Shown here piece after piece: positions 5,197 to 56,052 of a stretch of 64,000 nucleotides of DNA (its first letter is position 1; the number at the start of each line of letters is the position of its first letter). Under the pieces are notes generated by a model. That model was not told the DNA's origin. It searched no databases and worked only from the letters and a program-made list of their open reading frames with translations. Source of the DNA: Tubulanus polymorphus (Eukaryota; Nemertea; Palaeonemertea; Tubulaniformes; Tubulanidae); assembly GCF_964204645.1 (NCBI RefSeq), contig NC_134028.1:6422501-6486500 (forward strand). Reading direction: 5' to 3'. Position numbers and translations under genes: made by a program.

Positions 5197-8100
5197 ATGG
5201 CTGATAGAAGGAAGTTACAGGGTATGAATTAAGCGATGTTTTGAAGCAATCCTAAAAAACCTCGAAAGAAACTGGAACCTCTTCGTTTCGCTTGCTGACT
5301 TTTCACCCCCGAAATTTGTCTTGTTCGCGTTTTTAAAAAACTTTCATTTGTACGATGTCTGCTTAAACAACCTATGCTTTTAATGGCATAGCACCATCCA
5401 GTAAAAAATGACTATTAAATGAATGTGATAAGAACTGACAAGCCAACTAACCCCTTGGCCTACACCAACCCTGGCCTGGGCCTTGTTGGTAGGGTAGTCT
5501 TAAATGTTTCTAATTAGGTTTGTTGTTTTTGACAATCAATGTTCGTATTTATATTAAATGTCTTATCTTGATAAATGTGCGTTCATGAAAGCAGGGAGGT
5601 ACTGACTACTGCCTGCTGGTAAAAAGGATTTGGGAGTAGAGGTTTAGGTTCGGGTACTAGGGTGCGTTGGGGACAGTAAGGCCACTGTGTCACAATGTAG
5701 GTACGCTGGCGCTGTTAATACGAAATAAAGCTCTTAATGCGATTTTTTTAATTCCAGGTGAAATCGACCGGTGCCTGAAAAAGGTAGCAGAGGGAGTTGA
5801 AACATTTGAAGATATCTGGCAAAAGGTAATTAACCTCGATCCCGAATGTTGATGTCCAATTTTCAGATGATTGAATATCTCAAATTATCAACTCTGTCGT
5901 GAGTTGAATTTGATGCTAGTTCATTTAAGATTCTTGAAAAAGCCAAGTTTTAGATGGGTAAAATCTTATCGAAAAATGTTGAACTGACCCCCCAAGCTGG
6001 TGCTCAATTGTCGATTCATTTTCATAAAAAACCTACTATTTTGATAGTCAGAATTTACTCTAATTTTCGTTTGTTTTCAATTGCCAGGTCCATAATGCAA
6101 CAAATACGAACCAGAAAGAGAAATATGAAGCAGATCTCAAGAAGGAAATCAAGAAATTACAGGTAAGCCAAATTATGTTTAAACAAAGAAAAATGCATTC
6201 GAAAAAAAAACACATAAGCTCATATTTTAGTCCGTTTCTTTATTCGACTGTGAAAGAATATTGTTTCGAAATTTTTCAGAGATTACGAGACCAGATTAAA
6301 ACGTGGATGGCCTCAAATGATATCAAGGATAAAAGAGTCCTTCAGGATAATAGAAAACTTATTGAAATGGTAAGATCAATTTTTGAACTATTTTCTACGT
6401 AGAATGTCTTCGTTTCCAGATTTTTTCTGATATCTGCTTTCAAGGAATATCATATGAACAAAACTTCTTCACAATTGAAAGAATTTTTCAAAATTAAGAG
6501 CATGCTAGCTTCATACATTATCGAATGCAACTTATGATAACGATAATAGCCGAGTATGATGATTTATGCAAAATTCTAGTGCCGGGAAATGCCAATCATA
6601 AAAGTTGGAGTCTACTTTTAATTCCTGAATCAAAATTACCTACTTACATACGTAAGTAGATATCATTAATAGGTTAGTTTACTTAATGACAGGATAAAAG
6701 CATTCATTTCATAATTCCTGGGTTAAGATTGAAAATTGACACATTTAGTTGTAAATATGTAGTAATCATAATGACTTGGTAATGGGGTATGACCAATGAC
6801 CATAGCTTTTTGCTGAGGTCTGAGTAGTTCCGGGTGACTGGCCATCTGTATATATGCGCTCACCCAGTAGTGACATGGGACAATGCCAAGACGCGCAGAG
6901 CCACCTGGTGGAATTAACCAGCTGATTTGTTCCATTCAAATCTTTGGAACGTATTTGAATAAAGAGCATTACCAGTTGACATTTCATTAGACTGCGCTTG
7001 CAATAATGCATTCAGTATTCTGAAATAATCCGTGTAGTCGACAGTAGTGGATTTTAGATGGAGAGTAATTTGAGGTTTTGGATCTGACAAACAGGTCTAA
7101 TCTAATGCGCGGTAGCTTTTCGTCGATTCCGCAAAAATAATGCTCGTTTGTCAACGGTTGAAAATCGCGTGGAATTTCACGCGATGATTCGATAGAGAAC
7201 TCGTCTGGATTTCTGAATCGCGCTGCGAGGAATAGAAGAGGGGGGCTAAACGATGCAAGCGTCGCCGGATTCGTTGATCTATTGTAACGCTATACGCCGT
7301 CTGTTGCAGCAAATGGAACGCTTTAAAGTCGTCGAACGAGAGACGAAAACGAAAGCGTATTCGAAAGAAGGTTTGGGAGCGGCGACGAAACTCGACCCTC
7401 TGCAAAAGGAGAAAGACGACATGACGAACTGGTTATCGGTTAGTATTGTTACGTGTTCTCGCGGAGCTTTTGGAAAGTTTTGGAAACTGGGAATTTTTTC
7501 CAGGCCCCTGAAAAGCTATGAAAATTTTGTTGTTTGTTCTCTATGGCTGTCGACATGAGGGTTGGTTTAAAAATCAGAAATGGCTTCAAAATAATATTGT
7601 CCTTCTATTTTGAATTTTAGGCTATATGCCTAAATGTCTAATCACAATTAGATAAAAAAAACTTTACGAATATACATAATATGCACTTGTTTACCTGGAA
7701 TTGGTCTATGTTGCCTGTTCCAGTTTGGCTATGCCTAACTTAGGGATATGGAAAAATTTATAATCTGGGTATGGAAAAGTTGTGGAAGATGAAATTGGCA
7801 AACCTGAACAAAAAATCTGATGTTTATGATCACTGATGAAAGAAAGGCTTCAGAACCTGGTCAAACATGTTTGTTTGATTTGTATCTTTTGGGCTTGAAG
7901 ATAACAATATTTTATAAGTTTTCTAAATGCGATAATTTTTTCTATCCAGGCGAATATAAATCAGTTGAATATTCAAATCGACCAGGTCGAATCCGAAGTT
8001 GAACATATCATCGGTAATAAGAAGAAGAAAAGTGATAAAATGGATGTAAGTTTTAGAATTCAGCACAATTTCTAAATAACCATCAAAATAGCCACCTTAT

Positions 8101-56052: not shown

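What the first reader, a model, noticed from the sequence alone, without database searches (positions are those of the whole stretch)
5197..56052. Gene neighbourhood echoes human 19q13.42, 17q24-25 and 10q21
CNOT3 and a gamma-1/6-like CACNG gene share this window. In human, CNOT3 lies beside CACNG7/8/6 at 19q13.42. HID1 (17q25) lies on the same arm as CACNG5/4/1 (17q24), the 17/19 paralogue of that block. TFAM and SLC25A16 are both on 10q21. Close linkage of these genes in an invertebrate suggests fragments of ancient bilaterian linkage, not chance.
Basis: partly seen in the sequence, partly recalled or inferred. Interest (0 to 1): 0.65.

Follow-up and report, generated by a model that had tools for sequence, protein, structure and literature searches.

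The report
Ancient gene linkage on one chromosome
Genes that sit together on human chromosome arms 10q and 17q/19q also sit together, shuffled among each other, on one chromosome of an unidentified animal, which is the known pattern of very old animal chromosomes being inherited and merged, and not a special preserved gene cluster.

Summary
Four of the five named genes are real: CNOT3, HID1, TFAM and SLC25A16. The fifth is a true claudin-superfamily gene, but its rank as a CACNG gamma-1/6 gene is not shown: it lacks the YSYGWSF hallmark and matches no solved gamma subunit. CACNG-like genes do lie elsewhere on the same chromosome (C4).

Marker genes chosen before looking landed on C4, which is 10% of the assembly: CCDC6 (10q21), 29 kb past the window; ECD and MCU (10q22); and Tweety (17q25/19q13). 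DNA2 (10q21) did not. The flanks add SAMD8, VDAC and 4E-BP (10q22 set) and SMURF, UBE2O and EMRE (17q/22q set).

The likely explanation is chromosome-scale: C4 carries gene content of two vertebrate paralogons (4/5/8/10 and 16/17/19/22), interleaved at gene scale, as expected after two ancestral linkage groups fused and mixed. This is inherited macrosynteny with scrambled order, not a conserved local cluster. The three human "echoes" reduce to two.

Outgroup chromosomes could not be compared, human positions are textbook knowledge, and the species is unknown. Ordinary in kind; useful as a clear instance.

The parts
5661..17347 (+). CNOT3 (human 19q13.42); N-terminal Not3 domain exons 5661-7555 and C-terminal NOT box ending about 17347
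   Evidence: Pfam Not3 E 8.6e-20 and 1.5e-15, 6.3e-7; NOT2_3_5_C E 7.4e-26; exons read
23025..33833 (-). HID1 (human 17q25.1), 11 exon matches
   Evidence: Pfam Hid1 whole-assembly search, all matches at this one place, best E 5.2e-16
35091..39537 (+). TFAM (human 10q21.1), with a long intron and a lysine-rich tail
   Evidence: PDB phmmer, two-box alignment to TFAM chains E 2.6e-8; exons read
44213..46897 (+). SLC25A16 (human 10q21.3)
   Evidence: three Mito_carr repeats E 5.1e-70, single exon E 3.4e-13; SLC25A16-type residues read
   Evidence: Claudin_2 E 4.4e-9 on the spliced model, E 0.0023 on one exon; splice sites; no PDB match

Best explanation
The window is a piece of an animal chromosome (C4) that has inherited gene content from two ancestral linkage groups. 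One corresponds to the vertebrate 4/5/8/10 paralogon (here 10q21-22: SAMD8, VDAC2, TFAM, SLC25A16, CCDC6, EIF4EBP2, MCU, ECD). The other corresponds to the 16/17/19/22(/7) paralogon (SMURF2, HID1, UBE2O, CNOT3, CACNG, TTYH, TMC, conventional PKC, SMDT1, perhaps DAGLB). The two groups most likely fused in this lineage, and inversions then mixed their genes, so that members of both sets alternate within tens of kilobases. Genes stay on the same chromosome because exchange between chromosomes is rare, not because the local order is selected. Shown: gene identities, shared chromosome, interleaving. Inferred: that two groups were separate before, and that fusion then mixing is the cause. The human positions are textbook knowledge.
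For: Gene identities. Markers named before the search: CCDC6 at C4:6.516-6.519 Mb, 29 kb beyond the window; ECD at C4:23.6 Mb; MCU at C4:5.98 Mb; Tweety at C4:2.2 Mb; four of five informative markers on a contig with 10.2% of the bases, P 5e-4. Flanks: SAMD8 (PDB E 9e-55), VDAC, EMRE, UQ_con and 4E-BP (Pfam), SMURF2 (E 6e-49), UBE2O (E 1e-33), all within 6.363-6.530 Mb. Families of the 17/19 block: five of about seven claudin/CACNG-like places on C4, three of five TMC places, and a conventional-PKC-like C-terminus at C4:24.188 Mb. Published paralogons: human 4/5/8/10 including SAMD8 (PMC2453138); the SSTR2/3/5 block including TTYH (PMC3560075). Fusion and mixing of ancestral groups is well documented (PMC7269912, PMC11371463).
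Against: DNA2, human neighbour of SLC25A16, lies on C2. Prp31_C and Fox-1_C gave no matches, so two tests were uninformative. TMC, PKC and claudin families also have members on other contigs. No outgroup chromosome was compared, so fusion after separation is not distinguished from one older group that split in vertebrates. Some family-to-human choices (VDAC2, EIF4EBP2, SMURF2 among ohnologues) favour the hypothesis after the fact.
Confidence: 0.78

Rival explanations
1. Chance: with 8-10 genes in a window and several ohnologues per family in human, some pairs will share a human arm by accident.
Against: Four of five prospectively chosen informative markers on C4, P 5e-4; CCDC6 within 30 kb of the window; six of about 15 local genes in 10q21-22, P below 1e-6 for the per-gene rates tried, 0.6 to 2%.
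Confidence: 0.05
2. One old linkage group: in the bilaterian ancestor the 10q21-22 and 17q/19q/22q genes were on the same chromosome, and vertebrates (or their ancestors) later separated them.
For: The two sets are interleaved along 224 kb with no block structure beyond random (6 runs against 7.8 expected, P 0.23), as one well-mixed group would be.
Against: Published vertebrate paralogons treat 4/5/8/10 and the SSTR2/3/5 block separately (PMC2453138, PMC3560075). Amphioxus and scallop keep chordate linkage groups as separate intact units (PMC7269912), and in most annelids fusions are common while fissions are rare (PMC11371463). Thorough mixing after a fusion gives the same interleaving.
Confidence: 0.12
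3. Selected local cluster: a constrained small gene neighbourhood (shared regulation) has kept CNOT3, HID1, TFAM, SLC25A16 and a CACNG gene together since the bilaterian ancestor.
For: A few tight pairs, such as SAMD8 and VDAC about 30 kb apart here and, to my knowledge, adjacent at human 10q22.2; CNOT3 and a claudin-type gene within 35 kb.
Against: The same families are dispersed from 0.76 to 25.9 Mb of C4. TFAM, CCDC6 and SLC25A16 are spread over about 10 Mb in human. Unrelated genes (BBOX1, AAAS, GPCRs) intervene.
Confidence: 0.05

Closest known systems
Bilaterian / chordate ancestral linkage groups (ALGs, CLGs) with fusion-with-mixing
   Same: Genes stay linked on one chromosome across hundreds of millions of years while their order scrambles; two groups can fuse and intermix (PMC7269912, PMC11371463).
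   Different: Here shown with a few dozen markers in one unidentified genome and no outgroup map; ALG letters not assigned.
Human 4/5/8/10 paralogon (NPY receptor regions)
   Same: SAMD8 family belongs to it (PMC2453138); VDAC and EIF4EBP families have members on chromosomes 10, 8 and 5 (own knowledge), and their relatives lie around the window.
   Different: A vertebrate post-2R structure; the region holds single pre-duplication copies.
Human 16/17/22(/19/7) paralogon (SSTR2/3/5 regions)
   Same: TTYH family belongs to it (PMC3560075) and lies on C4; SMURF2, HID1, UBE2O, SMDT1, CNOT3, CACNG and PRKC fit the same human arms (own knowledge).
   Different: Membership of CNOT3, HID1, UBE2O and SMDT1 in that published block was not checked in the papers.
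CACNG-GSG1 family (TARPs, VDCC gamma-1/6, GSG1L, protostome subfamily)
   Same: Window gene is a four-TM claudin-superfamily protein with GLWR-C and an S-W-S at the TM4 start.
   Different: No YSYGWSF motif and no match to solved gamma subunits; subfamily unresolved.

Membership tests
Conserved ancestral linkage group content | Orthologues of genes linked in a distant animal fall on one chromosome more often than its share of the genome | tested here: met
   CCDC6, ECD, MCU and Tweety on C4, DNA2 on C2; C4 share 10.2%, P 5e-4
Conserved ancestral linkage group content | The same genes linked in outgroup chromosome assemblies (amphioxus, scallop, cnidarian) | not testable with these tools
   No eukaryote assembly other than the window's own is held
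Fusion-with-mixing of two linkage groups | Genes of two groups interleaved along the chromosome without block boundary | tested here: met
   Local order of the two sets has 6 runs, 7.8 expected at random, P 0.23; both sets also at 2-6 Mb and 23-26 Mb of C4
Fusion-with-mixing of two linkage groups | The two groups are separate in outgroups | not testable with these tools
   Only indirect: the two vertebrate paralogons are described separately (PMC2453138, PMC3560075)
Conserved microsynteny block | Local adjacency kept beyond shared chromosome | tested here: not met
   Members of the 17/19 and 10q sets are spread from 0.76 to 25.9 Mb on C4
Claudin superfamily | Pfam claudin profile over the full four-TM protein | tested here: met
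   Claudin_2 E 4.4e-9, residues 18-239 over profile 2-191
CACNG-GSG1 family | YSYGWSF motif at TM4 (PMC7653359) | tested here: not met
   Window gene reads ISLSWSC; the C4:6.565 Mb gene does have YSYGWSF
CACNG-GSG1 family | Closest to gamma subunits by sequence | tested here: inconclusive
   No PDB hit at E up to 10 for the spliced model; C4:25.85 Mb exon does hit gamma-7/5/2, E 2e-4; no phylogeny built

The most novel reading that the evidence does not exclude
The 10q21-22 and 17q/19q/22q gene sets were one linkage group in the bilaterian ancestor, so that this chromosome keeps the older state and the accepted ancestral karyotype has one division too many here.
Probability: 0.07. Interest if true: 0.6.

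Novelty: new member of a known kind. Interest (0 to 1): 0.33.

Why it matters
It shows that a first-look hunch about human cytogenetic "echoes" can be turned into a test with predictions: gene families picked from the same human arms were found on the expected chromosome. The pattern, two vertebrate paralogons interleaved on one chromosome, is a shared derived character if the fusion is confirmed, and such fusions are used to place lineages in the animal tree. It also warns that a shared human arm does not mean a conserved neighbourhood.

Tried and rejected
Rbfox (Fox-1_C) and PRPF31 (Prp31_C) as markers: no match at all, so uninformative.

Mitochondrial COX1, to learn the phylum: no match, so no mitochondrial contig found. 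Contig ends for a telomere repeat: the ends of C4, C1, C2 and C8 that I read carry none, so no phylum clue.

PDB search of the claudin gene for a gamma-subunit match: none. A small alignment of C4 claudin-like exons was too ragged to classify it; two single-exon PDB searches gave nothing decisive.

Papers for a gene-level list of ancestral linkage groups: the main texts hold none; searches for the gene names together with synteny found nothing direct.

Considered and rejected: that the three human locations are three independent echoes. 17q24-25 and 19q13.42 are paralogous copies of one block.

Full report
What was asked. The finding says that CNOT3, HID1, TFAM, SLC25A16 and a CACNG-type gene share a 51-kb stretch, that human 19q13.42, 17q24-25 and 10q21 are echoed by this, and that the cause is ancient bilaterian linkage.

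Setting. The window is G000:C4:6422501-6486500 in an assembly of 267.8 Mb and 77 contigs; C4 is 27.4 Mb, 10.2% of the bases. It is an animal by its gene content. No mitochondrial contig was found and the contig ends that I read carry no telomere repeat, so the phylum stays open.

The observation. CNOT3 is complete on the + strand from 5661 to 17347: Not3 domain and NOT2_3_5 C-terminal box. HID1 is on the - strand, 23025-33833, with eleven exon matches and no second copy in the assembly. TFAM lies at 35091-39537 on the + strand; a spliced model aligns over both HMG boxes to TFAM chains. SLC25A16 lies at 44213-46897; the family is certain, and the SLC25A16 rank rests on reading. The fifth gene, 56052-50110 on the - strand, is a true claudin-superfamily gene: the four-exon model scores E 4e-9 against Claudin_2 over its whole length. 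Whether it is a CACNG is open. Ramos-Vicente and Bayes (PMC7653359) give YSYGWSF as the mark of all CACNG-GSG1 proteins and report that the gamma-1/6 subfamily is lost in ecdysozoans. The window gene has ISLSWSC at that place, and no solved gamma subunit is matched. Other genes on C4 qualify better: C4:25.85 Mb matches gamma-7, -5 and -2 (best E 2e-4), and C4:6.565 Mb has YSYGWSF.

Is it chance? I therefore named further genes from the same human bands before searching. CCDC6 (10q21.2) lies at C4:6.516-6.519 Mb, 29 kb past the window. ECD (10q22.2) lies at C4:23.6 Mb and MCU (10q22.1) at C4:5.98 Mb. Tweety (TTYH1 at 19q13.42, TTYH2 at 17q25.1) lies at C4:2.2 Mb. DNA2 (10q21.3, beside SLC25A16) lies on C2. 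Two others gave no match anywhere. Four of five informative markers on a 10.2% contig has P 5e-4. Multi-copy families lean the same way: five of about seven claudin/CACNG-like places, three of five TMC places, and a conventional-PKC-type C-terminus at C4:24.188 Mb (classed by eye).

The flanks. I read 60 kb upstream and 100 kb downstream. In order along C4: SAMD8 (PDB E 9e-55), an RRM protein, three BBOX1-like genes, VDAC, a SMURF2-type ligase (E 6e-49; HECT), a GPCR, a DAGL-like gene (by eye only), a duplicated GPCR, the window, AAAS, EMRE/SMDT1, UBE2O (E 1e-33), CCDC6, 4E-BP, a CACNG and another GPCR. Human places, from general knowledge: SAMD8, VDAC2, TFAM, SLC25A16, CCDC6 and EIF4EBP2 all in 10q21-22; SMURF2, HID1 and UBE2O in 17q23-25; CNOT3 in 19q13.42; SMDT1 in 22q13. 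Six of about 15 genes in one 18-Mb human stretch is far beyond chance even at generous rates, though choosing VDAC2 and EIF4EBP2 among ohnologues is done after the fact.

What it is. Two published vertebrate paralogons explain the two sets: human 4/5/8/10, with the SAMD8 family in it (PMC2453138), and the SSTR2/3/5 regions, with TTYH in it (PMC3560075). Chordate linkage groups are kept as units in amphioxus and scallop (PMC7269912), and in many annelids such groups fuse and mix while fission is rare (PMC11371463). On C4 the two sets alternate with no block structure beyond random (6 runs against 7.8 expected, P 0.23). The best reading is therefore a chromosome made of two ancestral groups that fused and mixed. 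The step "two groups were separate before" is inferred, because no outgroup chromosome could be compared.

What it is not. It is not a preserved small neighbourhood: the members lie from 0.76 to 25.9 Mb on C4. It is not three independent echoes: 17q24-25 and 19q13.42 are paralogues of one block.

Novelty and value. This is a new instance of a known phenomenon. It would gain weight if the fusion proved to be a shared character of a clade. The more radical reading, that both sets were one ancestral group, is not excluded but unlikely.

Noticed in passing
window 1-1118, with C4:6419694-6423618: A 1,959-bp tandem duplication, 99.95% identical, carries a rhodopsin-type GPCR exon (7tm_1); the window starts inside the second copy. 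Either a very recent duplication or an assembly duplicate.
   Followed up: partly
window 1754-4087: Intronless 777-codon reading frame without any Pfam match, containing about 5.5 in-frame copies of a 75-bp (25-residue) repeat, GGTRNESSSRRSEDSRESRPADVST-like.
   Followed up: no
window 60067-60832, - strand: Two adjacent exons of a class-C GPCR (7tm_3), GABA-B-receptor-like by reading.
   Followed up: partly
window 27914-28144: An 83-bp tandem repeat of 2.8 copies within the HID1 gene region.
   Followed up: no
C4:6377984-6389420 (L041, L042): Three tandem gamma-butyrobetaine-hydroxylase-like genes, 82-89% alike in parts.
   Followed up: partly
window 37290-38013, with C4:6416693-6417420: About 730 bp in the long TFAM intron is 95% identical, inverted, to a stretch 43 kb upstream near the DAGL-like gene, so probably a dispersed repeat.
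   Followed up: no
C8:13.499-13.506 Mb (L001, L007, L008): A cluster of claudin-like genes with an LSWSYG motif instead of YSYGWSF; the window gene's ISLSWSC resembles them as much as CACNG.
   Followed up: no
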